Below are positions 916-15,799 of a stretch of 64,000 bases of DNA, piece by piece. The notes beneath the pieces were generated by a model that was not told where the DNA came from, searched no databases, and saw nothing but the letters and a program-made list of their open reading frames with translations. Location of the stretch: NCBI RefSeq assembly GCF_018402285.1, contig NZ_JAGYJH010000003.1, positions 620,001 through 684,000 of the forward strand, written 5' to 3'. This stretch comes from Hyphomonas sp. Its GTDB lineage: Bacteria; Pseudomonadota; Alphaproteobacteria; Caulobacterales; Hyphomonadaceae. Both the position numbers and the translations under genes were made by a program. Position 1 is the stretch's first letter; each line of letters begins with the position of its first letter.

Positions 916-1041
916 CTGGTGCTGAGTGTATTCGAATTTGTTGTTTGTTTCTCATAGTAGCGAATTATCGAATATTGGCAGCGTTCCTAAAGTCCTCTTT
1001 GCGAGCAAAAAGAGACATAAAAATTAAAGCGTGTTCGACCG

Positions 1042-1143
1042 GAATGGGCCAGGCTGGCTCCCACCAGAAGAATCCGGGACCGGCAGGGTTGATCCGATCG
1101 TGCCGTCCGGCAGGCTCACCGCCGACGAGGCCGAAGATCGCGG
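1042..1143 (+). repeat. Dispersed ~100-bp repeat, subfamily A, copy 1
   Basis: Begins AATGGGCCAGGCTGGCTCCC, has GACCGGCAGGGT in the centre and CAGGCTCACCGCCG then CCGAAGATCGC at the end. It shares the block CGTGCCGTCCGG with the copies at 4318 and 5051. It occupies most of the non-coding stretch between the kinase and parD (916-1370), where I see nothing else. Confidence 0.75.
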
Positions 1144-1370
1144 ATAGAAGTCATTGATACTGCGGCGCCGCAAGAGCGCTCGCGCCAAGCAATGTGTAAG
1201 TTATCCCGCAACCGCTAGCTGTTCAAACATACCGAGCGACCTCTCCGATCCAAGACGGCGAGCAGACTGGACCAAGCGGTCCAAGCCGACCGAAAATTCT
1301 CGCCCAGGATGCTCTAAAACGTGCTATAGAACACCAATAGTATGATTTTTGCGCCCGAAGGAGCCCAGCC

Positions 1371-1622
1371 ATGACCACCGTCCGAAAGACCATTACCCTC
1401 ACCGATACGCAGAATGACTGGATCAAGGCGCAGATCGACAGCGGCGCTTACACGAACGACAGCGAAGTGTTGCGCGACCTGATCCGCAAGGCGCAGCAGG
1501 AAACTTCCGAGATCGAGGCTATTCGCGCGGCGCTCATCGAAGGCGAGAGAAGCGGCCTCAGCGCGCGCGGGCCCGAAGAGATTCGCGCAGCGGTGAAGAA
1601 GCGGAAGCCCCTGAATGGTTGA
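1371..1622 (+). CDS. parD: ParD-family antitoxin
   Basis: An 83-residue protein opening TTVRKTITLTDTQNDWIKAQI, the ribbon-helix-helix DNA-binding fold of ParD antitoxins, followed by a charged C-terminal tail (EEIRAAVKKRKP) of the kind that wraps the toxin. A Shine-Dalgarno GAAGGAG lies 7 bases before the ATG. The stop overlaps the toxin start by 8 bases, so the two are translationally coupled. ParD proteins neutralise ParE and repress their own promoter. A TATGAT at 1341-1346 could be the -10 box. The family call is strong. Confidence 0.9.
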   Translation: MTTVRKTITLTDTQNDWIKAQIDSGAYTNDSEVLRDLIRKAQQETSEIEAIRAALIEGERSGLSARGPEEIRAAVKKRKPLNG

Positions 1623-1917
1623 TGGCCGCTATCACTTAACCCAGGCGGCCGATGCGGACCTCGAACGCTTGTACGAGTGGGGCATTGATCGCTTCGGCGT
1701 GAATGCTGCGGACGAATATTATGATGGGCTGACTGCACGCCTGGCGCAGATCGCGGGTACTCCGCAGCGATGGCAGGAGGTCGATCATATCCGCGCTGGC
1801 TATCGCCGCTCGGTGTATGTCGCGCATTCTGTCTATTTCCGGGTCGAGGCCCGTGGCGTCTTGATCGTGCGCGTCCTCGGGCGCGAAAATCCGCAAACCG
1901 GTCTTCCGAATGACTAA
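1615..1917 (+). CDS. parE: ParE/RelE-superfamily toxin
   Basis: A 100-residue protein with the ParE pattern: an N-terminal TQAADADLERLYEWGIDRFG helix pair, GLTARLAQIAGTP, then a C-terminal beta core RRSVYVAHSVYFRVEARGVLIVRVLGR. ParE toxins characterised so far poison DNA gyrase. The target of this one cannot be read from sequence. It starts inside the parD stop region (8-base overlap), the standard antitoxin-first order. The length is normal and no lesion is visible, so the module looks functional. Confidence 0.9.
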   Translation: MVDGRYHLTQAADADLERLYEWGIDRFGVNAADEYYDGLTARLAQIAGTPQRWQEVDHIRAGYRRSVYVAHSVYFRVEARGVLIVRVLGRENPQTGLPND

Positions 1918-1925
1918 CCGATGAT

Positions 1926-1981
1926 CAGGGCAGCCCGGTCTTCGGTATGCCACGCCGATATGAGGCCGGACTTCGCCGAAA
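1926..1981 (+). repeat. Dispersed repeat, subfamily B, partial copy
   Basis: Carries only the right half of the element: GGGCAGCCCGGTCTTCGGTATGCC followed by GAGGCCGGACTTCGCCGAA in two blocks. It aligns well with the right half of the copy at 11028. It lies immediately after parE. Confidence 0.55.
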
Positions 1982-2049
1982 TCGGTCACAGCGTGACCCT
2001 TGATTATTGCCCTTGACCGGGGAGCGAGACGTGCGCTTCTACTTTTCCA

Positions 2050-2832
2050 ATGCTCGATCATAACAACACCACAGTCCTAATCACGGGCGCTGGCTCAGGC
2101 ATCGGCAAGGCGCTCGCTGAGGCGTTTGCTGCGCGTGGCGCGTTTGTGGTGCTAGCAGATGTGGACGCAGCAAGTGTCCACGCGGTCGCGGCCGAGATCG
2201 GAGCAAACGCGCTGCCGGTCGTTGTCGATCTCGTGCATCCCGAAGCGGCGGCAGAGACAATCAACAAGGCGTTCGCTTGGCGTGGACGGCTCGATCTTGT
2301 CTGTTCGAACGCGGGTATAGGACACCACAAGAAGATCAAGAACGAGCTCCTTGGTCCTGAAACAGAGCGCCTGTTCGCGGTGAATCTTTTCGCTGCCGTT
2401 CGTATTGCACAGGCATATCTGCGCGCAATCGAGACAAGCGGCGCGCGCGGACGCCTGATGATTACCGGCTCGGAGAACTCCCTCTCCCTACCGGCGGCGG
2501 TGCGGGGGCGGGGATTGGGCCTCTACGGCGCAACCAAGCATGGCGTTCTGATCATGGCAGAGTGGCTCCGCGACGAAAATGACGGCGCGCTTGACGTCCA
2601 CGTCCTCATGCCAGGAGCGGTCTACACCCCGCTCATTGCCCGGGGGCTGCCCGATCCCGCAGAGGCCCCGCCGGAACTCGGGCTCATCACGCCCGAGCGC
2701 TGCGCAGAGCTTGCACTGAAAGGCATGGACCTGGAACTCTTCTACATTCCCACGCACGCTCACATAGCCGATGACATGCAGCCGCGCCATGAAGGCGTCG
2801 CAGTCGCACTAAAAGCGCTCGGCCTTCGCTAA
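2050..2832 (+). CDS. SDR-family NAD(P)-dependent oxidoreductase
   Basis: A classical short-chain dehydrogenase of 260 residues. The cofactor loop TGAGSGIGKAL is at residues 11-21, VLADVD closes strand 2 (an Asp, favouring NAD), and CSNAG is the NAG motif. The catalytic Ser lies in MITGSENSLS and the catalytic pair in LYGATKHG (YxxxK). The C-terminal half holds a substrate-binding MPGAVYTPLI segment. It stands alone, with no co-directional partner close enough for an operon, so the substrate is unknown. The 2833-3088 spacer downstream holds only a GCGGGCC/GGCCCGC hairpin at 3036-3062. Confidence 0.88.
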   Translation: MLDHNNTTVLITGAGSGIGKALAEAFAARGAFVVLADVDAASVHAVAAEIGANALPVVVDLVHPEAAAETINKAFAWRGRLDLVCSNAGIGHHKKIKNELLGPETERLFAVNLFAAVRIAQAYLRAIETSGARGRLMITGSENSLSLPAAVRGRGLGLYGATKHGVLIMAEWLRDENDGALDVHVLMPGAVYTPLIARGLPDPAEAPPELGLITPERCAELALKGMDLELFYIPTHAHIADDMQPRHEGVAVALKALGLR

Positions 2833-3088
2833 CAACGGTTCGACTGGCTTAGTCGCTCGTTTTCCTGGCGCTATTGCCCTACCTGTACCAGCAGCTCACC
2901 ATCGCCGGTAGCGGCCGTTGTCTCAGTTGAGGGCCTGCCTCCGACTTGGTTGCGTTGCTACAAGGCGTAAACTCAAGATCAACGCGACCCAAGGCATGTT
3001 CTCACTTGTTCGGCCGGGCGCAAGGCCTCAGGGTAGCGGGCCTGCAGACTTTAAAGGCCCGCGATACTTGCCCTTGAGGAATACTCCA

Positions 3089-3685
3089 ATGCAGGCTTCG
3101 CGCCACAGACGTCTACAACGTGAAAGGGATTTCACGGGCGACCGACTGACGAGCTTTCAACAGGTGTTCCTCAGGCACGGGCTTCCGGGACTGGTCCTTG
3201 CACTGACCTTGCTCGCGATTCCAGGGCTCCACACGGTATTTGTCGGGGGAATCCAGCGCGGACTTCACAATCCCTTTCCTTATGCGGCCCTCTTCCTTCT
3301 GACGTTCCTGATCTTGAATGTTTATGTATGGCGGATCGATCGGTGCTGGAGCCTGTCGAGGTTTGGTTGGGTCCTCTATCTCGGCGCGCTCTCGTTCTGG
3401 GAAGAGTGGTTGTTCCGGCTGGCCGTTCCCACGATCCTGGAAAGTTCGGGTGCTGCAGCCTGGCAGGCGTCGACGTTCAGCGCTCTGGTATTCGCAGGCG
3501 CGCACTATTTTACGCTACGCTGGAGGTTGCGGTGGTGCATAGCGGCGTTTCTGGGCGGACTGCTGCTCAGCCGACAAATGCAATTGCATAACGACCTGTT
3601 GCTGGTTGCAGCGCTTCATTGGATCGCCACGCTTGTGAACACTCCCCGACCGCCAGGAGTTTCTGCGGAACGTGCAACGGCTTGA
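3089..3685 (+). CDS. CPBP-family intramembrane metalloprotease
   Basis: A 198-residue membrane protein. The three signatures of the CPBP (CAAX protease and bacteriocin-processing, Rce1-like) family are present in order: the double-Glu motif WEEWLFR, a second block FAGAHYF with the His ligand, and ALHWIATLVN with the last His/Asn. Several hydrophobic spans surround them. Such enzymes cleave within the membrane, and in bacteria some process peptides or confer immunity to them. The frame is open further upstream, but the ATG at 3089 is preceded by GAGGA at an 8-base distance and is taken as the start. Confidence 0.82.
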   Translation: MQASRHRRLQRERDFTGDRLTSFQQVFLRHGLPGLVLALTLLAIPGLHTVFVGGIQRGLHNPFPYAALFLLTFLILNVYVWRIDRCWSLSRFGWVLYLGALSFWEEWLFRLAVPTILESSGAAAWQASTFSALVFAGAHYFTLRWRLRWCIAAFLGGLLLSRQMQLHNDLLLVAALHWIATLVNTPRPPGVSAERATA

Positions 3686-3688
3686 TCA

Positions 3689-3801
3689 ATGGGGCCGGAT
3701 TAAAACAGGTTGGCTCCGATGATCGATTTCGGCGTCTGGCTGGATCGACGCAGTCCTGCCGCTTAGTCACGTCATCAGCGCCAGGCGCAATCTCGCCGGA
3801 A
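3689..3801 (+). repeat. Dispersed repeat, subfamily B
   Basis: Contains CAGGTTGGCTCCGATGATCG then TTTCGGCGTC, closely matching the copy at 6927, and ends with CTCGCCGGAA. About nine extra bases split the initial GGGCC-AGG. It sits directly after the CPBP gene. Confidence 0.65.
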
Positions 3802-3822
3802 GTTGCCCTTCGCGGAGCACCT

Positions 3823-4254
3823 TCAGCGTTTCTCCTGCTGACTCCTGCACCACAGCAGGTAGCCTTCAAACGTCTTCGCGATCGGCGCCAGTGATCCGTT
3901 CAGCAATTGCTCCAACCTGTGAAGTTCTACGTCGTAAACCTCGCCAGTTCTGAGCGCATAGAGTACGACGCCCTCGCCTTCAAAGCCGGTTAAAGCGACG
4001 AAACCGGCCGGCACGCCCAACTCATCTTGTGCGTACTGCGTCGCGTCAGCGATCTGGTCGGGTTCGTTGAGGTCATACCAGCCACGGCACGTCGACGCGC
4101 CGAAGCTGGTATAGAAATGCGCTAGCTCGCTGTTGGCCGGGATGCCCAAGTCCTGCAGCAGCGCGGCCGTCTCGGACCGCGCGCCTTCGACAAATTGCCG
4201 GTAACGCGGCGTGCTGTTGGACTTGAGCCAGCGCTCTACTTCGGGTGCGAACAT
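3823..4254 (-). CDS. SMI1/KNR4 (SUKH)-family protein
   Basis: A 143-residue soluble protein. The segment SELAHFYTSFGAST near residue 45, the following RGWYDL, and VALTGFEGEGVVLYALRTGEVYDVELH near residue 90 follow the SUKH fold (the 'LP.dy..f...NGg' and 'tGEVydv' blocks). SUKH proteins are commonly immunity proteins for polymorphic toxins, also found as orphans. No toxin gene lies beside it here. It is one of the few minus-strand genes in the left part, flanked by repeat copies on both sides. The family call is moderately sure; the partner toxin is unknown. Confidence 0.7.
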   Translation of the reverse strand: MFAPEVERWLKSNSTPRYRQFVEGARSETAALLQDLGIPANSELAHFYTSFGASTCRGWYDLNEPDQIADATQYAQDELGVPAGFVALTGFEGEGVVLYALRTGEVYDVELHRLEQLLNGSLAPIAKTFEGYLLWCRSQQEKR

Positions 4255-4317
4255 GGGTATTTGCGCCTCTACTTCACAATGGCCTTTGGCGCCCCAAGCG
4301 GGTGGCGCCGGCTATTC

Positions 4318-4420
4318 TGGGCCAAGTCGGCACCCACCGTCAGAGTCCCGGACCGGCAGTGTCGATCCAATCGTGCCGTCCGGAGTCCTCACCGCCGCCA
4401 GGCCGGAGGTCGCCGAACCA
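4318..4420 (+). repeat. Dispersed repeat, subfamily A, copy 2
   Basis: GGGCCAAGTCGGCACCCACC at the start, CGGACCGGCAGTGTCGATCC in the centre, then AATCGTGCCGTCCGG and CAGGCCGGAGGTCGCCGAA. It lies between the SUKH gene and the small membrane protein at 4514. Confidence 0.75.
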
Positions 4421-4513
4421 GGTCGGCCGATCGCATCTTCTATTAACAGATAAGATTCAACGACTGTCTTATGCTGCATGGCAGCCACAGCGTTTTCACG
4501 ATGGAACTCACAT

Positions 4514-4738
4514 ATGATCGTATCGTTTCTGGACGCAAAACTGGTCTTGCCGATGATGGGGCTTGTTGTGTTTGTCGGCGCCCTCTTCTTTAGTCGGCAT
4601 CGCGACAAAGTCCGGCGAAATTCTCTGAAAAAGGACGCTAACGGCTTATACACTTGGACGGACTGGCCCGGTGGACCGCGAAGCTCCTACACGGACCCGT
4701 CGAGACCCGGTGGAAAATGGGACAGAGAGGGCGAGTAA
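4514..4738 (+). CDS. Small single-span membrane protein, unknown function
   Basis: A 74-residue protein: one hydrophobic span (LVLPMMGLVVFVGALFF), then a basic cytoplasmic-type stretch (SRHRDKVRRNSLKK) and an aromatic, Gly/Pro-rich tail (YTWTDWPGGPRSSY). The distribution of charge suggests N-out/C-in. An in-frame ATG 36 bases upstream is possible, but this start has a GGA element at normal spacing. I do not recognise a family. It sits between two repeat copies as a one-gene unit. Confidence 0.55.
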   Translation: MIVSFLDAKLVLPMMGLVVFVGALFFSRHRDKVRRNSLKKDANGLYTWTDWPGGPRSSYTDPSRPGGKWDREGE

Positions 4739-5050
4739 AGTGCCTTTGATGGCAGACCATTGCGTGATGACCGGATCCGGCGCCACCTGTTCTGCCACCG
4801 ACTTGACCACGAACACTATGGCAAACGTGCCTCGCTCGATCATGTGGCGCAGCTCGTGCGGGAGATTGCGCTCTGAGACTGCTCTGTCGCGCGTCCGCTC
4901 TGCGCAGGATGCTCGGGCAGAACTGACCGGGTAGTCATCCCTGAAGTTAAACGGCTTCAGAACTGGGATCTTGGGACCGATATGCGGGCCGAAAACATCC
5001 CCGTTTCTTCAAACCCAACATTCGCAGAACCAATTACGACAGGCAGCTTC

Positions 5051-5150
5051 GGGCCAGGTAGGCTCCCACCAGAAGATCCGCGACTGGCAGGGTCGATCCA
5101 ATCGTGCCGTCCGGCAGGCTCACCGCCGCCGGGCCGAAGATCGCCGGGCC
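5051..5150 (+). repeat. Dispersed repeat, subfamily A, copy 3
   Basis: GGGCCAGGTAGGCTCCCACC, GACTGGCAGGGTCGATCC, AATCGTGCCGTCCGGCAGG, CTCACCGCCG and CCGAAGATCGCCGG in order. It is the clearest subfamily A copy beside 1042. It fills part of the 4739-5243 gene-free stretch, where nothing else was supported. Confidence 0.8.
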
Positions 5151-5243
5151 TTAACTGAATGCCTTTAATTTGCATTCGCTTGTTATTCAAACGAAAGCCA
5201 GTTTCAAAGATGATATGCGAAGAGACGGCGATGGTGCGGATTC

Positions 5244-5477
5244 ATGGACAAGGTTCTTAGAGGCTTTTTGACCGTCCTGGACGCGGTAGGCACGATAGCG
5301 ATGTCGATTGTCGTGCTCGGCGGCGCCTTGTTCGGTGCATGCTTGGCCTGGTTTGTTCTGGGTGCCATGGAAACCGGGCCAGTCTGGCGCATGACTGGTA
5401 CGGTGGGGGCCGGACTGATCTCGGGCTTTCTGTCTTGGGCCATCTTGAACATCGCAGCGTTCTTCAATGCAGACTAA
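5244..5477 (+). CDS. Small two-span membrane protein, unknown function
   Basis: A 77-residue protein of almost entirely hydrophobic residues, with two membrane spans (about residues 10-42, dense in Gly/Ala/Val, and 50-74). It has no catalytic motif and no similarity that I recognise. GGCGATGGTGCGG precedes the ATG, a weak ribosome site. It forms a lone unit between repeat copies at 5051 and 5680. Its length and clean hydrophobic pattern make a real gene likely. Confidence 0.55.
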   Translation: MDKVLRGFLTVLDAVGTIAMSIVVLGGALFGACLAWFVLGAMETGPVWRMTGTVGAGLISGFLSWAILNIAAFFNAD

Positions 5478-5679
5478 ACCTGGGCCCACAAGAGGCTGGC
5501 CAGGTCGGGGACCCGGGTGTTGAAGCAGGGGACGCTCCCTCGCTTCCAGATAATCTGGAACGCCGGATCCAGGGCCAGCGCGACGAATGGGACGGATGCT
5601 GTTTATGAATGGATCGCAAACCCTGATGCGAGCCCACGGGATTAACCAGCCATCTGCCAAAGGCAGACCGACAGTGTCA

Positions 5680-5757
5680 AAAGGGCCAGATCGGCTCTGA
5701 TCGTCATCGTCGGCAACAGGCAGTGTCGCTCCAGTCCGGTCATCTGGCCAGGTTTCG
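5680..5757 (+). repeat. Dispersed repeat, subfamily B
   Basis: AAGGGCCAGATCGGCTCTGA, then CAGGCAGTGTCGCTCCAG and TCCGGTCATCTGGCCAGG. The tail is shorter than in other copies. It lies in the 5478-5886 spacer, which holds nothing else I can support. Confidence 0.6.
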
Positions 5758-5886
5758 AAGGCGCGCTCGATTTCCCCGCCGTACGCTGATACCTTCGCAA
5801 CCGCTTGAACGGGCTGGATGCGGCGCCGACAGATCCGGAACCAGGCAGCTCAATGCTTGTCGACTGTGGAGGGGCAAGGAGGTCAA

Positions 5887-6882
5887 ATGAGTACCCGGAA
5901 CTTGCGCTGGACGATCATCGCCCTCACGGCAACAGCCTGTGCATCGTCGGCGCCAGCAATCCGCGATACAACCGCAACGCCTGCCTGCGAAATCTCGGCG
6001 CCCGACACCGCCTGGCTGAACACGTCTTTGGCGGCCGTGCGCGAAGCGGCGCTCGGACTGGGCGGCGACATCCGGCTCGACCAGACAGAAATCATAGTCT
6101 TCGATGCAAGTTGCACCCTGATCGTTGCGCCAACCGGCGAACGCAGCTTCACCGCTCATGACGGCATGGTTTCGCTCCCGATCGGGCGCACGCCAGCTGT
6201 CATAACGTCTTTCGCAGCGCCATCGGCAGATCCCGGAGGCGCCTATTTCGTCATGGCCCTGCCAAGCATCTGGGAATCGGCCGGCTTCAAGAGTGAAATC
6301 TCGGTGCACGATTTCACACTCGGTGTCTTCGCTCATGAAATCAGCCATGTGTGGCAACTGCCGACCTATTTTCAGTCGATCCGGAGCGTGACTGGCGTCG
6401 AGCGCCTGCCCGCGCCGGTAGATGATGACATGGTGCAACGCATCTTTGGAGAGGATGAGCGGTTTCAGCGCGGCGTTGTCGCGGAGATTGAAGCCTTCAG
6501 ATGGGCAGCCCGGCAAGAGGATCCGGAGGCGGTTGGCCGCCTTGCCCGCGAGGCGCTCGGACAATTGCGCGAAAGATGGAAGACGCACTTCACCGGCGAC
6601 TATCGCGCCCTCGCCGAGGTTCAGGCGACCTTTCTGACGCTTGAGGGATCGGGCCAATGGTTCGCCTTGCGAGCCCTTACTGCGTCGCCTTCCGGGCCGC
6701 GTCTTGAACCTGACCTTGCTCTGCGTGCTTTTGGTCAACGTGGCGCAAAGTGGTCGCAGGATCTCGGCCTTGCTCTTGCAGCTGTGCTGGACCGGCTCGA
6801 TCCTGGCTGGCCATCATCCGTCTACGGTGCCGACGATATGTCCCTGATCGATCTGCTGGACAATGCGCTGGCGCAGCCCTGA
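5887..6882 (+). CDS. Exported HExxH putative zinc metalloprotease (lipoprotein-like)
   Basis: 331 residues. The start is fixed by a near-perfect AAGGAGGT four bases upstream of the ATG. The N-terminus has Arg residues, a short hydrophobic run and LTATAC, which fits a lipoprotein signal with Cys at about residue 18. The segment GVFAHEISHVWQL carries HExxH, the zinc-binding motif of metallopeptidases. Downstream Glu-rich helices (VVAEIEAFRWAA and ALAEVQATFLTLEGSGQW) could supply the third ligand. The ordered helices and lack of transmembrane spans suggest a periplasmic enzyme. No family name is certain. Confidence 0.65.
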   Translation: MSTRNLRWTIIALTATACASSAPAIRDTTATPACEISAPDTAWLNTSLAAVREAALGLGGDIRLDQTEIIVFDASCTLIVAPTGERSFTAHDGMVSLPIGRTPAVITSFAAPSADPGGAYFVMALPSIWESAGFKSEISVHDFTLGVFAHEISHVWQLPTYFQSIRSVTGVERLPAPVDDDMVQRIFGEDERFQRGVVAEIEAFRWAARQEDPEAVGRLAREALGQLRERWKTHFTGDYRALAEVQATFLTLEGSGQWFALRALTASPSGPRLEPDLALRAFGQRGAKWSQDLGLALAAVLDRLDPGWPSSVYGADDMSLIDLLDNALAQP

Positions 6883-6926
6883 GCGTGGCCGACAAGACGC
6901 CTATCGGAGGGCTCTATGTCAGGAAA

Positions 6927-7021
6927 GGGCCAGGTTGGCTCCGACAATCGGTTTCGGCGTCGGGCAGGGTCGCCTCAGTCCGGTCATTCGGCTGTTTCAC
7001 CAGCACCCTGCCGGACTTCGT
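6927..7021 (+). repeat. Dispersed repeat, subfamily B
   Basis: AAGGGCCAGGTTGGCTCCGA, TCGGTTTCGGCGTCGGGCAG, AGTCCGGTCATTCGGCTG and CCCTGCCGGACTTCG. GGCAGGGT and ACCCTGCC inside it can pair. It lies between the metalloprotease and the gene at 7148. Confidence 0.75.
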
Positions 7022-7147
7022 CAACACTGACCTACAGAAAGCCGGTTCCATCTGAAGGCTCCGGCCCGTGCCAGTGACGGCCAGGCACATCAGGTCAGTC
7101 TTGCCACAATACTAGCGTTCTGCAGGAACATCGGGATAAGCTTGGGC

Positions 7148-7810
7148 ATGGACCGTTTTGCACCAACCACAAGCGACTATGGCCTGCTGGCCATGCCCCT
7201 GGAGCAAGCCGCAGCCGCCTATGCCGTATTCTGGGCTGATGCGCCGGTCGTCATGACCCGGTCTGACCTTCAGGGCAGCCCGGAAGACCTCTTTGCACAT
7301 CTGGAACCGCTGAGCATGGCGCTCGATCGAACCCTGCTTGTTGCCAACGGCCAAAGCTGGACCAGCTATTTTGCCAATGGCCTGATCGGATCGGATGTCT
7401 TCCTGCCGGTGTCCCGGATGGCGGCAGCGCGCGGATGTACTGGCTTGCGTGTCGTCAGATCACGCACGGCGACCATATTCGAGGCCTACGAAAGCCCGGA
7501 ACGCGGCGGGAATATCCTCAACTCCCGACGATCCATTTGTGCTGCGCGCGAGGGAGGTTGGGAATTCAGATCCTCGGGCGAGCCTTACGCGTTTGAAGAC
7601 CTCTCCCGCTACGAGGCCAAGCGCGTCAGGGATCGGTTTACGCCCGAGCATCTGGATGACCTTCTTGCGGGCCTGGGCGCGCCGTTGAGTCCACTGCCAG
7701 AGGACCAGAAGCTTGACGCCATATTGTTCGCCCACGAAGCAACCGCGTCGCATCTTGCGCGGTGGAGTTATGCGGAAGTGCAGGCTGGGCTGCCTTGGAA
7801 GAGGGGCTAG
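7148..7810 (+). CDS. Conserved hypothetical protein
   Basis: A soluble protein of 220 residues. The ATG at 7148 is preferred over the TTG two codons upstream. The central part reads as a folded domain: SWTSYFANGLIGSDVF, GCTGLRVVRSRTATIFEAY, then NILNSRRSICAAREGGWEF and PYAFEDLSRY, with RVRDRFTPEHLDDLLAGLG near the end. I believe this pattern recurs in uncharacterised proteins from several bacterial groups, but I cannot attach a function. It has no membrane span or signal peptide. A recombinase remnant follows directly, so this end of the unit may have been rearranged. Confidence 0.6.
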   Translation: MDRFAPTTSDYGLLAMPLEQAAAAYAVFWADAPVVMTRSDLQGSPEDLFAHLEPLSMALDRTLLVANGQSWTSYFANGLIGSDVFLPVSRMAAARGCTGLRVVRSRTATIFEAYESPERGGNILNSRRSICAAREGGWEFRSSGEPYAFEDLSRYEAKRVRDRFTPEHLDDLLAGLGAPLSPLPEDQKLDAILFAHEATASHLARWSYAEVQAGLPWKRG

Positions 7811-7899
7811 ACTTCGGCCCTTGCATGTCAAGCACAGACGCAACCTTGCTGCCTTCTATGCGCGTCGAAGAGCCGATGCTTGCGATCGTGGCCACCCGT

Positions 7900-8139
7900 C
7901 TCAGAGCGGAAAGGCGCTCAGGAGCCAGGGTGCCAAGGGTGGCCTCGATCGGGCTGAACCCTGCAACCTATGGCACGCACTCGCTCAGGCGCACCAAGGC
8001 CGCCCTCATTTATCGCAAGACCGGCAATCTTAGGGCTGTCCAGCTCCTGCTCGGACACACAAAGCTTGAGAGCCCAGTCAGGTATCTGGGCGTGGACGTT
8101 GACGATGCGCTGGAAATCTCGACGGGCATCGATCTGTGA
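7900..8139 (+). pseudogene. Tyrosine recombinase/integrase, C-terminal remnant
   Basis: The last ~65 codons match the end of a phage-type integrase: IGLNPATYGTHSLRRTKA gives the HxxR box, LRAVQLLLGHTKLES gives the LGH box, and VRYLGVDVDDAL carries the nucleophilic Tyr. The N-terminal arm-binding domain and the first catalytic Arg are missing, and the reading frame upstream (from about 7762) does not look like an integrase. It is therefore treated as a 5'-deleted fragment. It lacks a start signal. It lies inside the repeat-rich left part. Confidence 0.75.
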
Positions 8140-8292
8140 AAATCCGGAGGGGCAGGAAGCGAACTTACCTGCCGTTCCATTCTCGGTTCAAAACAGGCGC
8201 CGTCTCGCCGGAATGAGACATTTGAATTTTATTTTTGCAAACGACGGATCAAGCTGTCTGTCTCGTTAAATTCGAAACACAGAGAGCCAGCC

Positions 8293-9690
8293 ATGCCTCA
8301 AACTCTTGCCGCGTCGATTGCCGTCAACCGCTTCGGGCTGGGTGCCCGGCCGGGTGAGCTTGATGCGGAAATCACAGACCCGAAAGACTGGCTGGCGCAG
8401 CAACTGACGCGCACGACGAGCTTCACGCTGCCCCCGGGCGGTTTGCCGACCACCCGCAGCGCCGCCGAAGCGCTCGGCAGCTATCTTGAAGACCTGAAGA
8501 AAAAAACGGCAGGCAAAGCGGGCAAGATGAGCCCGGATGAGCAGGAAGAGGCCATCCTAAAGCCGCTCCAGAAATTACGCGAAATCCTGATCGCCGAAAT
8601 CGAGGCGCGCACCCTTCGCGGGCTCACGACCGAGGCGAGTTTCGCGGAGCGTCTCGTCCTGTTCTGGTCGAACCATTTCACGGTTTCTGCGAACAAGGCA
8701 GTCACCATTCCCTTTGCCGGGGTATTCGAGCGCGAGGTGATCCGGGCCGGCCTGACGGGCACCTTCGCCGACCTGCTGGTCGCCTCGACCCGGCACCCCG
8801 GCATGTTGCTCTATCTCGATCAGGCCCAGTCGATGGGGCCGAACTCGAAAGCCGGAAAACGCCGCGACAAGGGTCTCAACGAGAACCTCGCCCGCGAAAT
8901 CCTTGAGCTGCAGACCCTCGGTGCGCAGGGCGGCTTCACTCAGGCGGACGTCACAGAGTTTGCCAAGGCGCTTACCGGCTGGTCGCTCGCGGGCGGGCGC
9001 ACCAGGCTGCTTGTCCCCGGCGCAGACCCGGGCGACTTTATCTTCGTGGACCGCTTCCACGAACCTGGCACCCGCACGGTGATGGGAAAACGCTACAGCG
9101 CGGACGACGAAGGGCAGGGCGAAGCCATCCTGCGCGACCTCGCCAAGCATCCCTCCACGGCGCAACGCGTTGCCATGAAACTCGCCCGGCATTTCATATC
9201 AGACAAGCCGCCTGCTTCTGCCGTCGAGGCGCTGGCGAGAAGTTTCCGCACCAGCGGTGGCCGCTTGCCGGCGCTGCACGAGACACTGATCTCGCTTGAA
9301 GAGGCCTGGAATCCCGAGGCGCAGAAGTTCAAGTCTCCCAATGAGTTCTTCCTGTCCGCCCTGCGTTTCACGGGTCTGCCCAAAGTCGAGCGCAAGGCCA
9401 TCACGGCGGCTTACGGCCTGCTCGGGCAGGTGCCCTATCAGGCGCCGTCGCCTGAAGGCTGGCCGGATGATGCGGCCAGCTGGGCAGGGCCAGACGCTGT
9501 GATCAAGCGCGTCGAGTGGGCTCAGGCTCTTGCCGACAGGCTGGGAAACAAGGTTCGTCCCGAAAATCTAGCGCGATCCGCACTCGGCCCGGCCCTGTCA
9601 GCAGCAACGGCCCAGAGCATCGCCCGCGCAGAAAGCGCCTCGCAAGGGCTGACACTCGCCCTGATGAGTCCCGAATTCCAGCGCCGATAG
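8293..9690 (+). CDS. DUF1800-domain protein
   Basis: 465 residues. AASIAVNRFGLGARPGELDAE at the N-terminus is the typical DUF1800 opening. FAERLVLFWSNHFTVSANK, LNENLAREILELQTLG and DVTEFAKALTGWSL are the conserved core blocks. FHEPGTRTVMGKRY and VAMKLARHFISDKPP follow in family order. DUF1800 genes are almost always followed by a DUF1501 gene, as here 8 bases downstream. The pair is common in bacteria, but its biochemical role is not established. No signal peptide is evident. Confidence 0.92.
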   Translation: MPQTLAASIAVNRFGLGARPGELDAEITDPKDWLAQQLTRTTSFTLPPGGLPTTRSAAEALGSYLEDLKKKTAGKAGKMSPDEQEEAILKPLQKLREILIAEIEARTLRGLTTEASFAERLVLFWSNHFTVSANKAVTIPFAGVFEREVIRAGLTGTFADLLVASTRHPGMLLYLDQAQSMGPNSKAGKRRDKGLNENLAREILELQTLGAQGGFTQADVTEFAKALTGWSLAGGRTRLLVPGADPGDFIFVDRFHEPGTRTVMGKRYSADDEGQGEAILRDLAKHPSTAQRVAMKLARHFISDKPPASAVEALARSFRTSGGRLPALHETLISLEEAWNPEAQKFKSPNEFFLSALRFTGLPKVERKAITAAYGLLGQVPYQAPSPEGWPDDAASWAGPDAVIKRVEWAQALADRLGNKVRPENLARSALGPALSAATAQSIARAESASQGLTLALMSPEFQRR

Positions 9691-9697
9691 GAGGCCC

Positions 9698-10915
9698 ATG
9701 ATGACCCTTCCTCTGATGACGCGGCGCGCGGCGCTGATGGCGGGCGGCGCCATGTTCCTTGCGGGATCCGCAGGCGCCCTGACCATTTCCCGGCAGGCCG
9801 CAGACCGCAAGTTCGTCCTCGTCATCCTGCGCGGGGCAATGGACGGGCTAGCAGCCGTCGCCCCCTATGGCGACGCGCACTACAGCGCCTTGCGCGGCAA
9901 GCTCGCGCTGGCGCCCCCGGGCGAAGCCAGCGGAGTACTTCCGCTTACGGATGGATTTGGCTTGCATCCCAACCTTGCCTTTCTCTACGAACAATGGACA
10001 GGTCGCGAGCTCGCCATCATACCAGCCTGCGCGTCGCCTTACCGGGAGCGCTCGCACTTTGACGCCCAGGACGTGCTTGAGACAGGCGCTGCAGAAGTTT
10101 TCGGGGCAAGCGACGGCTGGCTCGGCCGCGCGCTGACAGCCCTGCCTGCAGACTTGAAACGCGAAGCAGTGTCCATCTCGGGATCGCTGCCGCTTGTGCT
10201 GCGGGGATCGCCCTTGGCGACCAGCTGGGCGCCCTCCTTCGCGCCGTCTGCCAGCGAGGACACACTCAACCGCTTGATGGACCTCTATGCAGGCGACGCC
10301 CTGCTGGGCCCGGCGCTCGCCTCCGCCATCGAGACGAATGCGATCGCCAGTGCGTCCGGCATGGACGGTATGGACGGCAAGGCCCGGCGCAATGGCCCCG
10401 GCGCCTATAAAGGTCTTGCGGAAGCGGCGGCGCGGCTACTGTCCGCCGAAGGCGAGCCCGCCGCCGCCGTGCTGTCGTTCGATGGCTGGGATACCCATGC
10501 CAACCAGGGCGCCGCCAATGGCCAGCTCGCCCTTCGCCTCGCCGGACTCGATGCGGCCTTGCGCGAGCTCAGGAACGGGCTCGGCGCTCATTGGCCCAGA
10601 ACGGTCGTGGCGGTGGTCACCGAGTTTGGTCGAACGGTCGCCGAAAACGGAACCGGCGGCACCGATCATGGCAGCGGCAGCGCCGCCTTCCTGCTGGGCG
10701 GTGCGGTGTCGGGCGGAAAGTTCGGCGGCGACTGGCCCGGACTGGCGCCCAAAGCGCTGTTCCAGGGCCGCGACCTCGCGCCGGCAAACGACATCCGGTC
10801 GGTCTTCATGGCGGTGCTGCAAGACCATTGGGGCGTGGACCGGGACACACTTGGCCGGATCGTCTTTCCAGATGCGATTGGGGTGCGGTCAATTTCGGGC
10901 CTGTTACGGGCTTGA
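9698..10915 (+). CDS. DUF1501-domain protein, Tat-exported
   Basis: 405 residues. The N-terminus MTRRAALMAGGAMFLAGSAG is a twin-arginine-type signal, so a folded protein is probably exported by Tat. The body shows the sulfatase-like DUF1501 features: FVLVILRGAMDGLAAVAPYGD, GFGLHPNLAFLYEQW, HFDAQDVLETG, FDGWDTHANQG and VTEFGRTVAENGTGGTDHG. AGGAGG sits just before the ATG, with a second ATG one codon later. It follows DUF1800 in the same unit and probably forms a functional pair with it. Confidence 0.92.
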   Translation: MMTLPLMTRRAALMAGGAMFLAGSAGALTISRQAADRKFVLVILRGAMDGLAAVAPYGDAHYSALRGKLALAPPGEASGVLPLTDGFGLHPNLAFLYEQWTGRELAIIPACASPYRERSHFDAQDVLETGAAEVFGASDGWLGRALTALPADLKREAVSISGSLPLVLRGSPLATSWAPSFAPSASEDTLNRLMDLYAGDALLGPALASAIETNAIASASGMDGMDGKARRNGPGAYKGLAEAAARLLSAEGEPAAAVLSFDGWDTHANQGAANGQLALRLAGLDAALRELRNGLGAHWPRTVVAVVTEFGRTVAENGTGGTDHGSGSAAFLLGGAVSGGKFGGDWPGLAPKALFQGRDLAPANDIRSVFMAVLQDHWGVDRDTLGRIVFPDAIGVRSISGLLRA

Positions 10916-11027
10916 CTATCTCCGCAACGGGCTTCGCCATGCGAAGGGTCATCCGGAATAACTCGACTGTCAGGTAAAGAAAAAACCAGCTCCGGGGCTC
11001 CGACTGGTTACAGCTCCCGCAGCAATG

Positions 11028-11124
11028 CGCCTGGCTGGCTCCCATCGTCATTGTGGGGGACCGGCAGGGTCCCTTCAATCCGGTCATCGCAATGCCCCAC
11101 CACCTAAAGGCCGGGCTTCACCGC
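11028..11124 (+). repeat. Dispersed repeat, subfamily B
   Basis: GCCTGGCTGGCTCCCATCG, GGGACCGGCAGGGTCCC, TTCAATCCGGTCATCGC and AGGCCGGGCTTCACCGC. GACCGG and CCGGTC in it can form a stem with a 15-base loop. It lies in the 10916-11373 gap after DUF1501; nothing else is supported there. Confidence 0.75.
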
Positions 11125-11373
11125 AAGTCGCACCGCTGCCGCTTCCTGAGTATCTCTGACGCTCTGCAAACCAAGCCTGCGTGATGCAAGGAATTGGATT
11201 GAGATGCGATGACGCTGCGGAGGCCATGGCCTGCATAGAGGCTTTCGCGCGGCGCGCGTGAAGTTTGAGAGCGGCACTATACCGGCTGATAACCAGATTG
11301 CGGCGCTCTGACGCGCCAGACAGTCTGCGCCGGCTAGGCGTGCGTAAAGAGGGCAGCTTTAAGGAGACATTCA

Positions 11374-11529
11374 ATGAGTGAGATTTATTCGAGACGCCTG
11401 CTGGCCAGCATGTACATGCACCAGGCTCGCATGTTGTATGAGGATGGCCAGAGGAAGGCTGCAAGAGGGCTTCTGGTCAAAGCCATGGCCATGCTCGTCC
11501 TGCCGGTAGCGGCCCCCAGCCGGCACTGA
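11374..11529 (+). CDS. Small protein of 51 residues, unknown
   Basis: A short frame opening MSEIYSRRLLASMYMHQARM and ending VLPVAAPSRH. It is preceded by AAGGAG eight bases before the ATG, one of the best ribosome sites in the region. The sequence is a helical, Arg/Lys/Met-rich stretch followed by a hydrophobic Ala/Leu segment. I recognise no family. The strong start signal in an otherwise empty spacer is the main support. It may be the only gene of its unit. Confidence 0.45.
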   Translation: MSEIYSRRLLASMYMHQARMLYEDGQRKAARGLLVKAMAMLVLPVAAPSRH

Positions 11530-11725
11530 TACCGGTACGCGCGCACCGCCGCTGAAACAATCGGGTTCCCGGCGGCCGCCAGGCGCGCAGCAGTCACCGG
11601 GGGCCTCAGGCGCCAATACCCTGCGGATTGATGCAAGTTCGCCCACGCCCGATTGCACGGCGGGGAAGAGCCTTGGGCACATGCCGATCAGGACACTGAC
11701 TATTTTTGCAAAAAGGAACAATCAG

Positions 11726-12367
11726 ATGGCGACAGTTCTGATCATCGGGGCCAGCAGCGGAATAGGGCTTGCAACGACCCGACTGGCGCTGGAACGCGGA
11801 CATTCGGTCGTAGCCTTTGCGCGTTCGGCAGGCCAGATAGCTCTCCAGCACGCAAGGCTCAGGAAACTGGTCGGAAATGCGCGCAAAACCGATGACGTCC
11901 GGCTCGCGCTTGCCGGCGTGGACGCGGTCATCCAGACGCTCGGCGTACCTGCGAACACCCGCATGATCACGGGTCCGGTCGACTTGTTCTCCACCGCAAC
12001 GACAACACTCCTGCCTCTTATGAAAGAACTCGGGATCCGCCGGTTGATTAGCGTGACGGGTTTCGGCGCCGGGGAAAGCCGTTCCAGCATAGCGCCTTTG
12101 CAACGGCTCGGATTCAACCTCGTATTCGGCCGTGCCTATGGCGACAAGGATCTTCAGGAGCAGCTGATCACGCAAAGCGGTCTCGACTGGACCATCGTTC
12201 GGCCGGGTGTCCTGATAAATACGCGCAAAGTCGGGCGGTACCGCGTGCTGGTTTCCCAGCAGAACTGGCGCAACGGGATTGTCTCGCGCAGCGATGTTGC
12301 CGATTTCCTCGTCAGGCAACTCACTGACGAAACCTGTCTCAAGCAGGCGCCAGTGCTTGTAAGGTGA
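11726..12367 (+). CDS. NAD(P)-binding protein, NmrA/atypical SDR type
   Basis: A Rossmann-fold protein of 213 residues. TVLIIGASSGIGLATTRLAL at the N-terminus is the dinucleotide-binding loop, SVVAFARS ends strand 2 with an Arg that favours NADP, and GVDAVIQTLG and LISVTGFGAGES are the later strands. The YxxxK pair of classical SDRs is absent, while LDWTIVRPGVLI is typical of NmrA-like and SDR_a5 proteins. These act as oxidoreductases or redox sensors. The start follows AAAAGGAA. The gene ends just before the CIA30 gene, 89 bases away, so the two may be co-transcribed. Confidence 0.82.
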   Translation: MATVLIIGASSGIGLATTRLALERGHSVVAFARSAGQIALQHARLRKLVGNARKTDDVRLALAGVDAVIQTLGVPANTRMITGPVDLFSTATTTLLPLMKELGIRRLISVTGFGAGESRSSIAPLQRLGFNLVFGRAYGDKDLQEQLITQSGLDWTIVRPGVLINTRKVGRYRVLVSQQNWRNGIVSRSDVADFLVRQLTDETCLKQAPVLVR

Positions 12368-12456
12368 TAGTGTGGGGCCAGCTTCAAACAGTCTGCCTGA
12401 ACCGTGCTGGTTGGGCAGATTTATTCCGCAGACGAAAGGTTTGTGTATTTAAACTT

Positions 12457-13041
12457 ATGCGACGCCTCATAATGGTTTTCTTCGCTGCGCTAACCTGTAT
12501 GGTTTCAGGAATGACCAGTTCCGCTTCGCCGAAAAAAGCAACCATCTCACCTTTGGTCACCTTTCAGTCGCCGGAAGAGGCTCGCGCCTGGCGAACCGTC
12601 AACGACGATGTCATGGGCGGCCGCTCTCTGGGCGGAAGTGTTGTCGAGGCAGGGCAACTTGTCTTTACCGGGCTGATCAACACCAACGGAGGAGGTTTCT
12701 CTTCGGTGCGCCGCCAGTTAGAGCCCGGCGCGCTGGAAGGTGGCCGGGCCTTGGTTCTTTCGGTAAAGTCCGATGGACGTGCCTACAGGCTGATCGCGCA
12801 AACCGACGCCCGTTTCAGGGGCCGTTATGTTTCGTATCAAGCGCCGATCCCGGTAAGCGAAGTGGGCGAGTGGGCGACTGTCCGAATTCCCTTGAGCGAT
12901 TTCGCACCCACTGTTTTCGGCCGCAGCGTTCCGGCCAGTGAGTTTGTGCCCGCGCAGGTTACCGAGCTTGGCGTCATCATTGCAGACAATGTCGATGGCA
13001 ACTTTGCGATTGCCGTCAGATCAATCAGCGTCGAACGTTAG
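12457..13041 (+). CDS. CIA30-family protein, exported
   Basis: 194 residues. A signal peptide (RRLIMVFFAALTCMVSGM) is followed by a beta-rich domain matching CIA30, related to carbohydrate-binding jelly rolls: WRTVNDDVMGGRSLGG, FTGLINTNGGGFSSVRR, LVLSVKSDGRAYRL, FAPTVFGRSVP and ELGVIIADNVDGNFAI. In mitochondria CIA30 helps assemble complex I. Bacterial homologues are of unknown role and the signal peptide places this one in the envelope. The start is the ATG at 12457 or the in-frame one five codons later. It is probably co-transcribed with the preceding NAD(P)-binding gene. Confidence 0.82.
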   Translation: MRRLIMVFFAALTCMVSGMTSSASPKKATISPLVTFQSPEEARAWRTVNDDVMGGRSLGGSVVEAGQLVFTGLINTNGGGFSSVRRQLEPGALEGGRALVLSVKSDGRAYRLIAQTDARFRGRYVSYQAPIPVSEVGEWATVRIPLSDFAPTVFGRSVPASEFVPAQVTELGVIIADNVDGNFAIAVRSISVER

Positions 13042-13162
13042 GTCTTACTTTGGTCGGCTGCTCGCCGCGAGTGCCGTGAGTTAAGCTTTGGGCCAGGTCA
13101 TCAGCAGGCTGGGGTGCTGCTACCCGGCGAAAGATCGCCGAACTCTGGCGAAACGCAACACC

Positions 13163-13495
13163 TCAAACTACGAGGTATTTAAAGAGCCAGTAGCCTGAGA
13201 GCCAGAGTGTTGCATAGGCGGACACAAGTCCGATGCGTCCCCGCATGACCCCCTGAACCAGCGTTCTGTGTTCTCGTCCCGCGGCGAAATAAACCGTCAG
13301 CAGGTAGACCGAGAAAAGACCGCCAAAGCCGCAAGCAAAGAATGCAACATCGCCGATGATCGAGAGCGGGGTCGCGCCGTCGATGAGCACTCCGGCGAGC
13401 GGCAGAAATGACAGCATTACCCAGAAGCCCAGGACAGGCGCGGCATACATCCAGAGAAGTAAACGGCCGACGCCGCTATGGTTCAAAGTCGTCAT
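13163..13495 (-). CDS. Small multi-span membrane protein, unknown
   Basis: 110 residues with three to four hydrophobic spans (VGRLLLWMYAAPVLGFWVML, PLSIIGDVAFFACGFGGLF, VYLLTVYFAA, LVSAYATLWLSGYWLFKYL). A clear ribosome site AAAGGAG stands seven bases before its ATG on the minus strand. No motif points to transport or catalysis. It forms a lone minus-strand unit between repeat-like sequence on both sides. It is real by start signal and hydrophobic pattern; no family is recognised. Confidence 0.6.
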   Translation of the reverse strand: MTTLNHSGVGRLLLWMYAAPVLGFWVMLSFLPLAGVLIDGATPLSIIGDVAFFACGFGGLFSVYLLTVYFAAGREHRTLVQGVMRGRIGLVSAYATLWLSGYWLFKYLVV

Positions 13496-13646
13496 GGTCG
13501 TGCTCCTTTAGCTTACTCTCTGATACGGTCGGCAAGTCCAGGTGGACCTCAGTCAAACCTGTGGTCTGCTGCCGCAGCGTCGCCGGAATGCTCCGAGAGT
13601 GACCGTCGACGACAGGCAGGGGCGGGTTCGGGCTTCAGACCGGCTC

Positions 13647-13748
13647 AAATGGGCCAGGTTGGCTCCGATCTACGTCGCTGACGACCGGCAGCGTCACATC
13701 AATCCTGTCATTCGACCGTCTCACGCAAACCAGGCTGGAGACCGCCGA
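13647..13748 (+). repeat. Dispersed repeat, subfamily B
   Basis: CAAATGGGCCAGGTTGGCTC, GACGACCGGCAGCGTC, ATCAATCCTGTCATTCG and CCAGGCTGGAGACCGCCGA in order. It occupies the spacer before the EamA gene. A weaker relative with only the two ends (GGGCCAGG and GATCGCCGAA) lies at 13090-13143. Confidence 0.7.
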
Positions 13749-13863
13749 TTGTGGTCGCTCGACCAAAGCGATTGTCTCGCGATGATCATTCCGGAGGGAT
13801 CGCGTCGGATCACGATTCAGCTTTGGTTGCTGTCCGGGCTTGCTCGGGCCGGATTAGCCAGAA

Positions 13864-14727
13864 ATGATGTCGGCGATGCGCCTGTGCCTGTTGACTGCCC
13901 TGACGATGCTAGCCTTTGCCGCAAACTCGGTGCTGAACCGTTGGGCGGTGGGAGCAGGTCACATTGAAGCTGTGGACTTCGCCTTCGTGCGGGTCGTGGC
14001 GGGGGCAGCAACACTCTCGGCGTTGCTTCTTTTGCAGCGTGGCGCGCTGGTCTGGCCGGGGCGGCAGGGACGGGTTGCCGGGGTGCTCGGGCTCGCGGTC
14101 TATCTCATCGGATTTTCGTTAGCGTATCGTGGGATCAATGCGGGAACCGGGGCGCTGGTTCTGTTCGGCACGGTGCAAGTCATGATGTTTGCGGGCGCGC
14201 TCAGGTCGGGCGAAGCACTTCCGGCGCGGCGCTGGGCAGGTGCCGGACTTGCACTTGTTGGCCTGGCCCTGATTGCGGCGCCGGGGGACAGCGGGGTGGC
14301 GCTTGTGCCGCTTGGGTTGATGGCGGCGGCCGGGATCGGCTGGGGGGTCTATTCCCTGGCAGGGAGGCATGCCACCGATCCGCTGGCAGAAACGGCATGG
14401 AATTTCGTTCTTGCTGCGCCGCTGGTCCTGCCGCTGTGGCTGATCGCCGGGGACGGCGCGCCGGACGCGGTCGGGGTTGCACTGGCCGCGGTGTCGGGCG
14501 CGGTCACCTCGGGTCTGGGCTATGCGCTCTGGTACAGGATATTGCCCGCGCTGGGGGCCGGGCGGGCAGCGGCGGCGCAATTGACGGTGCCGGTGATTGC
14601 TGCGCTGGGCGGGGCGATCCTCTTGGCCGAGGTCCCGGGGCCACAGTACTGGCTTTCTGCGGCTCTGGTCTTGGGCGGAGTGGCCCTGGCAAGTCTGCCG
14701 GAACAGAGGTTCTTTTCCAGGCGATGA
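13864..14727 (+). CDS. EamA-family (DMT superfamily) transporter
   Basis: 287 residues with about ten membrane spans arranged as two EamA halves. The N-terminal half shows NSVLNRWAVGAGHIEAVDFAFVRVVAG, the second half AAAGIGWGVYSLAGR, SGAVTSGLGYALWYRILP and LTVPVIAALGGAIL, which are typical EamA blocks. Family members export amino acids or other metabolites; the substrate cannot be called. Three candidate ATGs lie within the first five codons. It is a one-gene unit with repeat copies before and after it. Confidence 0.87.
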   Translation: MMSAMRLCLLTALTMLAFAANSVLNRWAVGAGHIEAVDFAFVRVVAGAATLSALLLLQRGALVWPGRQGRVAGVLGLAVYLIGFSLAYRGINAGTGALVLFGTVQVMMFAGALRSGEALPARRWAGAGLALVGLALIAAPGDSGVALVPLGLMAAAGIGWGVYSLAGRHATDPLAETAWNFVLAAPLVLPLWLIAGDGAPDAVGVALAAVSGAVTSGLGYALWYRILPALGAGRAAAAQLTVPVIAALGGAILLAEVPGPQYWLSAALVLGGVALASLPEQRFFSRR

Positions 14728-14745
14728 AGGGTATGTCCAGTCGCC

Positions 14746-14839
14746 GCATTGGCCCTGATCATCGATGGCCGCGACTGGCAGGGTCTCTTCAATCCGGTCA
14801 TAGGGCTGCCAAGCGTGCACCCGACGGCAGTTCGCCGAC
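14746..14839 (+). repeat. Dispersed repeat, subfamily B
   Basis: CATTGGCCCTGATCATCGAT, GCGACTGGCAGGGTCTC, TTCAATCCGGTCATAGGG and GCAGTTCGCCGACA. The centre closely matches the 11028 copy. The left arm is shorter. It follows the EamA stop by 18 bases. Confidence 0.65.
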
Positions 14840-14936
14840 AATAGACGCCCGCCGACTTATCCGGAGTGTCAGCAGTGGGCGCGCAACGAGACTATCAGAT
14901 TGAGCCTCACCTAGGCCGGACATCGACCCTCGTCAG

Positions 14937-15242: not shown

Positions 15243-15266
15243 ATCGCCTGTCCTTCCCGTCTGAAC

Positions 15267-15563: not shown

Positions 15564-15574
15564 TCATTCACCTT

Positions 15575-15609: not shown

Positions 15610-15799
15610 TCGGCTGAGGCGCGCTCAATCAGTTCTTGCCTCATCGCTAGAACGACTTTTCGGGATGATGCCCCCCCTATCCGAATCATCAGCCGGCTGA
15701 AATGGGCCAAACGCGGCCGACTGACCAGGCGGTAACGTATGACTGTTGTCGCCCTCAAAAAAGACATCCAGCTTTCGGTCCCTGATAGCTCGACCGATC

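What the first reader, a model, noticed from the sequence alone, without database searches (positions are those of the whole stretch)
1042..14839. Cassette-like array: same-orientation ~100-bp repeats between single-gene units
At least nine clear copies of one imperfect element (near 1042, 3689, 4318, 5051, 5680, 6927, 11028, 13647, 14746), plus a half copy at 1926 and a weaker one at 13090, occupy the spacers of the left part. All read in the same orientation although genes lie on both strands. They share, in order, GGGCCAGGTTGGCTCC, a variable spacer, GACCGGCAGGGTC, TCAATCCGGTCAT, CTCACCG and AGGCCGGA..TCGCCGAA. The genes between them are the kind found in mobile arrays: ParDE, HigBA, a SUKH protein, a CPBP protease and small membrane proteins. 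I saw no clear copy right of the IS110. This looks like an array of recombination units, or a repeat invading such an array.
Basis: partly seen in the sequence, partly recalled or inferred. Interest (0 to 1): 0.78.

Follow-up and report, generated by a model that had tools for sequence, protein, structure and literature searches.

The report
Integron-like gene-cassette array in Hyphomonas
A bacterium carries rows of small exchangeable gene units separated by one repeated DNA site, much like an integron but without the integron parts that were tested for, and the likeliest driver is a very small recombinase that also occurs in many other bacteria.

Summary
The repeats are real: nine full copies and a half copy, all on one strand. 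Genome-wide, the 19 copies above 25 bits lie in two clusters; this one has 11 of 11 co-oriented. The element was found in 16 of 37 Hyphomonas genomes and in none of 24 of other families. Over 68 loci, 99 of 103 neighbouring copies share orientation. Cassettes, window ParDE and HigBA among them, recur beside different neighbours, and shared sequence begins at one box, TCGCCG|AAAnnnGnCATT: mean identity 0.58 before it, 0.90 after. Two cassettes are present in one species and absent in another between the same flanks. A ~214-aa tyrosine recombinase sits in such arrays; in seven copies its 3' flank ends at that box and different sequence follows. The window keeps a C-terminal remnant (7918-8136). 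Searches found no integron integrase, attC cores or fold. I read it as an integron-like cassette system built from other parts. That the small recombinase drives it is inferred. Blocks of the repeat often do not travel with their cassette, so the order of events is unresolved.

The parts
1033..1156 (+). repeat copy 1 (model 3-125); its 3' box (TCGCGG here) is the left edge of the ParDE cassette
1143..1978 (+). ParDE cassette (ParD 1371-1622, ParE 1615-1917) with its own short variant site; same unit in G022, G014, G011 with unlike sequence on its left
1931..1990 (+). half copy (model 65-124), the 3' site of the ParDE cassette; shared with G022 up to TCGCCG, different after it
3693..3812 (+). 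repeat copy
4308..4424 (+). repeat copy
5038..5147 (+). repeat copy; central block 88% identical to that of copy 1, 5' ends unlike
5672..5771 (+). repeat copy
6916..7027 (+). repeat copy
7918..8136 (+). C-terminal remnant of the small tyrosine recombinase (residues 140-214, 92% identical to the G014 copy)
8140..8210 (+). 3' flank of the recombinase unit (hairpin, then TCTCGCCG at 8203-8210); insertion-site-like edge, next unit begins at 8211 with GAATGAGACATT
8211..11129 (+). unit with DUF1800 and DUF1501 genes, up to the end of the next repeat
11019..11129 (+). repeat copy
13090..13140 (+). possible internally deleted copy: GGGCCA ... TCGCCG only
   Evidence: read; not listed by the model
13638..13760 (+). 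repeat copy
14744..14848 (+). repeat copy; left edge of the HigBA cassette (TTCGCCG|ACAATAGACGCCC)
14838..15709 (+). HigBA cassette (genes on -), 92% identical unit in G022:C57; ends in a tail plus GGGCCA at 15692-15709, the rest of that site is missing beside the IS110

Best explanation
This is part of a gene-cassette array kept by site-specific recombination. Each unit is a gene or small gene group that opens with a head of the form AAAnnnGnCATT and closes with a ~120-bp site. The site has two inverted end boxes, GGGCCA and TCGCCG, around a ~85-bp block. Shown by comparison: units are present, absent or moved between Hyphomonas species, and junctions fall at the 3' box TCGCCG| (left edges of shared cassettes, right edge of the recombinase unit, one two-unit difference). 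Inferred: exchange is catalysed by the ~214-aa tyrosine recombinase (open frame 227) encoded in the arrays, a catalytic domain without the usual N-terminal core-binding domain, whose 3' flank acts as the home insertion point; units probably move as excised circles, and the 5' box is a second place of exchange. In this genome only a C-terminal remnant of that gene was found, so this array is probably a relic or is served in trans.
For: Clustering and orientation (99 of 103 neighbouring pairs). Sharp edges of conservation in 78 copies. Left-junction test, 15 pairs from 8 cassettes (six pairs are ParDE): 40 nt before the box 0.58 identical, after it 0.90; right edge of the recombinase unit, 7 copies in 21 pairs: 0.82 before, 0.51 after; unrelated 40-mers 0.51. 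ParDE starts at the same base in four genomes; window and G022 also share its 3' site up to TCGCCG and then diverge. Two cassettes present in G022 and absent from G011 between the same flanks. The same cassette is followed by an ordinary repeat in G014 and by the recombinase unit in G022, switching at GGGCCACG. The four recombinase copies of 95-100% identity (G014, G022, G024, G010) all lie between repeats; in G024 these are 7 and 3 kb away, one of them a partial copy of E 0.002. The left end upstream of the gene fits the repeat's first 41 block positions, 0 of 5000 shuffles, in each of the 3 copies tested. Repeats and recombinase (fragments counted) in 37 genus genomes: 9 both, 7 repeat only, 3 recombinase only, 18 neither, Fisher p 0.009; with only the six full-length copies of at least 88%, p 0.043. 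Catalytic R, HxxR, H and Y line up with 4a8e and 5hxy in weak matches, E 0.003.
Against: No recombination has been observed; the evidence is comparative and the named array-bearing records are metagenome-assembled. Of 13 shared-cassette pairs only two have a downstream block at least 0.85 alike (one of them over 45 positions) and none an upstream block; two others reach 0.76 (one downstream, one upstream) and one 0.74. So the integron rule that the site travels with the gene upstream of it often fails, and exchange at the 5' box or of the block must be added. Seven of 16 repeat-bearing genus genomes have no recombinase hit of the kind counted; G029 has the gene but no repeat better than 0.005, G012 a 60% copy and no repeat. 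Apart from its last 8 bases the recombinase's 3' flank resembles the repeat no better than shuffles. Of six full-length copies three (L194, L195, L198) show no GGGCCA in the 220 bases read upstream and L076 has CGGCCA. Outside the genus the repeat was not found beside the recombinase.
Confidence: 0.62

Rival explanations
1. The repeat is a short non-autonomous relative of a small-recombinase insertion element (MITE-like). The block GGGCCA...TCGCCG is what moves, into spacers of an already variable island; the genes are not mobile cassettes.
For: The central block (m27-m106) is linked within itself and unlinked to m3-16 and m114-125; the 15 block pairs of at least 84% identity have mostly unlike ends; the recombinase unit shares the left 41 block positions of the repeat in 3 copies, and the ordinary block and the recombinase unit replace each other behind the same gene.
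Against: Genes themselves change neighbours with junctions at the box; near-uniform orientation within arrays is not expected of independent insertions.
Confidence: 0.2
2. An ordinary integron array (cluster of attC lacking integrase) whose attC sites have diverged.
For: Array layout, unit size, toxin-antitoxin cargo, inverted outer boxes (read).
Against: attC cores in the end 45 bases of 165 copies: top strand 1 and 0, bottom 0 and 1, shuffles about 4 each; both together 0, where shuffles give only 0.1. No consensus pair over 99 copies; nine copies folded singly show no shared structure to the eye and one z-score of -2.5, the rest -1 to +1, on each strand. No integron integrase in 42 genus genomes at E<=1e-30, though no control genome rang.
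Confidence: 0.06
3. Units are shuffled by ordinary homologous recombination between the repeats.
For: The repeats are direct and close together.
Against: Random copies are only about 60% identical; junctions gather at one box at the end of the repeat; the GST cassette on C5 sits beside TTCGCCC with no repeat detected upstream.
Confidence: 0.06

Closest known systems
Integrons (IntI, attI, attC cassette arrays; CALIN)
   Same: Arrays of ~1-kb units, a repeat per unit in one orientation, toxin-antitoxin cargo, insertion beside a tyrosine recombinase gene, junction at a fixed box at the 3' end of the site.
   Different: No IntI found, attC cores not present beyond chance, no consensus fold, main gene on the repeat's strand in 33 and opposite in 31 of 64, exchange at the 5' end too, recombinase without core-binding domain. 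Integron features are recalled, not looked up.
Small simple tyrosine recombinases (FimB/FimE size, Xer-like catalytic domain)
   Same: About 214 aa; best NCBIfam match NF040815 (XerA type), 63.8 bits against a cut-off of 220, aligned only from profile position 96 of 263. The FimB/FimE size is recalled.
   Different: FimB/FimE invert a promoter (recalled); no cassette array is known to me for them.
IS-derived MITEs
   Same: Short copies share an end box and the left part with a recombinase-coding unit.
   Different: Copies lie in clusters, co-oriented, and the genes between them are exchanged.

Membership tests
Integron | integron integrase IntI | tested here: not met
   0 of 42 genus genomes at E<=1e-30, 0 over cut-off; no control genome rang, so sensitivity is not proven. 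Looser search of the own genome: five matches, none over the cut-off.
Integron | attC cores RYYYAAC and GTTRRRY | tested here: not met
   0 of 165 copies have both in their end 45 bases, on either strand; single cores no more than 1 of 165, shuffles about 4.
Integron | attC single-strand hairpin | tested here: not met
   RNAalifold: 0 pairs over 99 copies, one strand, on a sequence-fitted alignment without the outer ends; single folds of nine copies on both strands, compared by eye; end bases show no pairing covariation beyond shuffles.
Integron | array of units with co-oriented repeats | tested here: met
   99 of 103 neighbouring pairs.
Integron | insertion site beside the recombinase gene | tested here: met
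   7 of 8 Hyphomonas copies with this 3' flank end at the box (five TCGCCG, L194 TCGCCA, L091 TCGCAG) and different sequence follows; the eighth, L085, is cut short before the box. The 60-62% copies in G002 and G012 and the fragments in G011 and G028 were not part of this count.
Tyrosine recombinase | catalytic domain with R, K, HxxR, H, Y | tested here: met
   R, HxxR, H, Y in register with 4a8e and 5hxy, HxxR, H, Y with 5jjv, all weak matches; K assigned by eye only. Pfam PF00589 over its cut-off for the G014, G022 and G024 copies.
Mobile cassette system | observed excision or integration | not testable with these tools
   needs an experiment or reads across circular junctions.

The most novel reading that the evidence does not exclude
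A second kind of gene-cassette platform, independent of integrons: a ~200-aa tyrosine recombinase whose own 3' flank ends in GCC|AAnnnGnCATT captures gene units at that edge; it forms long arrays in Hyphomonas, while the same recombinase family and edge are scattered through proteobacterial chromosomes and plasmids.
Probability: 0.42. Interest if true: 0.93.

Novelty: new variant of a known kind. Interest (0 to 1): 0.82.

Why it matters
Integrons are the standard example of a gene-cassette array in bacteria. A cassette array with a different site and probably a different, minimal recombinase would show that cassette capture evolved more than once. It would also suggest a role for a widespread class of small integrases (405 of 72,556 plasmid records at E<=1e-30) for which my literature searches gave no account, and would give a testable system for how genes are stored and shuffled.

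Tried and rejected
attC-like folding, covariation and core motifs: no support. The repeat pattern in viral contigs: 0 stretches, with a pattern that recovers only 30 of 166 known copies. The window array in plasmid records: no match in 'near' mode. The repeat beside recombinase homologues outside the genus: nothing better than E 0.05. Synteny across the array: of ten genomes examined, own included, seven lack a match to the right flanking gene; in G061 the two flanking genes are 498 and 1139 kb along the contig and in G018 on different contigs, so no empty site could be read. Right half of the recombinase unit compared with the repeat: not better than shuffles apart from the box. Other copies of the G349 recombinase flank: one more at 97% over 59 bases, that of the second recombinase copy, and eleven weak matches not followed beyond reading the boxes in some. 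Literature: seven searches of the held library listed no description of this system; subscription papers are mostly missing and no preprints are held. PMC8138268 was seen in passages only; the other papers only as search listings.

Dropped before counts: the L083/L085 pair (one member not matched by the search string) and the L108 and L123 copies of the GST cassette; L279 (HigBA in G011, 94% over the genes) did not align at the left edge; hits under 45% identity; copies under 95 positions or at least 90% alike (143 of 166 kept); intervals outside 300-2200 bp (69 of 95 kept); the median is over 95 co-oriented intervals of 100-6000 bp; homologues not reaching residue 205.
Full report
WHAT IS THERE. 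Nine full copies and one half copy of an imperfect repeat lie at 1033-14848, all on +. A motif scan independent of the model finds seven of them and one match elsewhere in the window; 0 of 100 shuffles had eight. Seventy-eight copies, own and from the genus, show that conservation starts and stops sharply; the unit is about 123 bp. The window is position 620001-684000 of a 1.47-Mb contig; the flanking gene at C3:600393 has an 88% identical counterpart in the one-contig genus genome G016, so this is chromosomal DNA of the genus. The genus is Hyphomonas by the titles of records whose contigs equal those of my handles in length, such as G014.

DISTRIBUTION. In the own genome 19 copies reach 25 bits: 11 at C3:608-635 kb, all +, and 8 on contig C5, + up to 24 kb and - beyond 27 kb (150 of 2130 first-look candidates were scored). 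Of 37 genus genomes 16 have a match at E<=1e-9; 24 genomes of other families in the order have none better than 0.003. Fourteen are titled Hyphomonas or Hyphomonadaceae; 13 bear other names but belong to the records behind G022, G024 and G011, most of them by equal contig length; three (two of Acidobacteria bacterium Ga0077551, one Rhodospirillaceae bin) I did not place. Viral contigs: 0. In 68 loci (1.09 Mb, 166 copies at E<=0.01) 99 of 103 neighbours share orientation; over 95 co-oriented intervals of 100-6000 bp the median gap is 1048 bp. Loci were chosen because they hold copies, so density is biased, orientation not. Of 69 intervals of 300-2200 bp, 36 hold one predicted gene, 22 two, 6 more, 5 none; the main gene is on the repeat's strand in 33 and opposite in 31 (a crude gene caller of my own).

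EXCHANGE AND JUNCTIONS. The window ParDE unit occurs in G022, G014 and G011 (90-93%), HigBA in G022 (92%) and its gene part in G011 (94%); other window genes recur elsewhere in the genus. ParDE begins at the same base in four genomes with unlike sequence before it; window and G022 share its own 3' site up to TCGCCG and then part. Over 15 pairs from 8 cassettes (not independent: six are ParDE) the 40 nt before the box are 0.58 identical, the level of random repeats, and the 40 nt after it 0.90. G022 carries two units that G011 lacks between flanks alike at 92-93%; the right junction is again at TCGCCG, though the third site in G022 is degenerate and was recognised by eye. The GST unit on own contig C5 follows TTCGCCC with no repeat detected upstream, which looks like a secondary site.

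AGAINST A SIMPLE RULE. Over 13 shared pairs two have a downstream block at least 0.85 alike, none an upstream block; two others reach 0.76 and one 0.74 (95% of random pairs lie below 0.73). In one pair the block downstream in one copy is 0.86 like the block upstream in the other, as a circle cut at one box and joined at the other would give; it is a single case. Linkage within the repeat agrees that the block is separate: m27-m106 is one unit, unlinked to both ends. So the 5' box GGGCCA is probably a second place of exchange.

THE RECOMBINASE. A tyrosine recombinase of about 214 aa (open frame 227) lies between repeats in G014, G022, G024 and G010 (95-100% identity); in G024 the nearest copies are 7 and 3 kb away and the latter is partial. 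Full-length relatives at 88% are in G029 and G033; the window has residues 140-214 only, at 92%. In seven copies the 3' flank, a hairpin and about 35 further bases, ends at TCGCCG (L194 TCGCCA, L091 TCGCAG) and different sequence follows: 0.82 identity before, 0.51 after, the level of unrelated sequence; in an eighth, L085, the flank is cut short. Upstream of the gene three copies have the repeat's left end (0 of 5000 shuffles each); L194, L195 and L198 do not. The right half shows no likeness to the repeat beyond the box. In G014 a cassette is followed by an ordinary repeat, in G022 the same cassette by the recombinase unit, switching at GGGCCACG. Co-occurrence in 37 genomes: Fisher p 0.009 with fragments counted, 0.043 with the six full-length copies only. 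NCBIfam and PDB matches are to Xer-type catalytic domains; the best NCBIfam alignment lacks the first 95 profile positions.

BEYOND THE GENUS. Homologues at 36-68% identity occur in 12 of 288 other genomes of the class sample at E<=1e-15 and in 405 of 72,556 plasmid records at E<=1e-30. The loci fetched from the class sample lack the repeat; of the plasmids four were read, by annotation, and show the gene among unrelated neighbours. Yet 7 of 19 flanks of divergent homologues (two of the 19 from this genus, four from plasmids, two from one genome) contain GCC-N6-8-GnCAT against a shuffle rate of 0.024; I set the pattern after seeing some of these flanks, so this is not a blind test. The pattern GCCRAWAGCGGnCATT, drawn from the same edge, has 30 hits in 289 class genomes, ten of them in one genome (G072) without the recombinase, against 6 for its reverse; it is found in 5 of 13 genomes with the recombinase and 14 of 276 without, p 0.0007, and not in the own genome. 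This suggests, without proving, that the edge belongs to the recombinase family at large.

NOT AN INTEGRON BY THE TESTS. No IntI in 42 genus genomes (no control genome rang), attC cores not above chance, no fold. It works like an integron but fails the membership features tested.

CONFIDENCE. That gene units are exchanged at this box I hold at about 0.8; that the small recombinase does it, about 0.6. I label it a new variant of a known kind (cassette platforms); if step 1 of the next steps succeeds it would deserve to be called categorically new.

Noticed in passing
window 15692-15963: The HigBA cassette ends in a tail plus GGGCCA, after which the site is missing just before the IS110 gene (15964-16911); the IS110 may have inserted in or beside a repeat.
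   Followed up: partly
G000 contig C5, about 24-27 kb (L040): Repeat orientation flips from + to - within the second cluster.
   Followed up: no
G072 (class sample): Ten copies of GCCRAWAGCGGnCATT in one genome without a recombinase match at E<=1e-15; possibly another array type.
   Followed up: no
L287 4001-4700 (Escherichia coli IncY plasmid): Recombinase homologue at 60% followed by a hairpin and GTGCC|AACAGCGGACATT, the same edge as in Hyphomonas.
   Followed up: partly
L184 and L201 (G349): Two recombinase copies share their 3' flank to GTTAGCC and then differ; the one in L184 is bounded by inverted GGCTAACAATC / GATTGTTAGCC.
   Followed up: partly
window 44250-44302: serC leader (RF00517), 50.2 bits.
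   Followed up: no
window 5818-6882, 7142-7810, 13163-13495: Array genes without a Pfam, NCBIfam or PADLOC match at 0.001.
   Followed up: no
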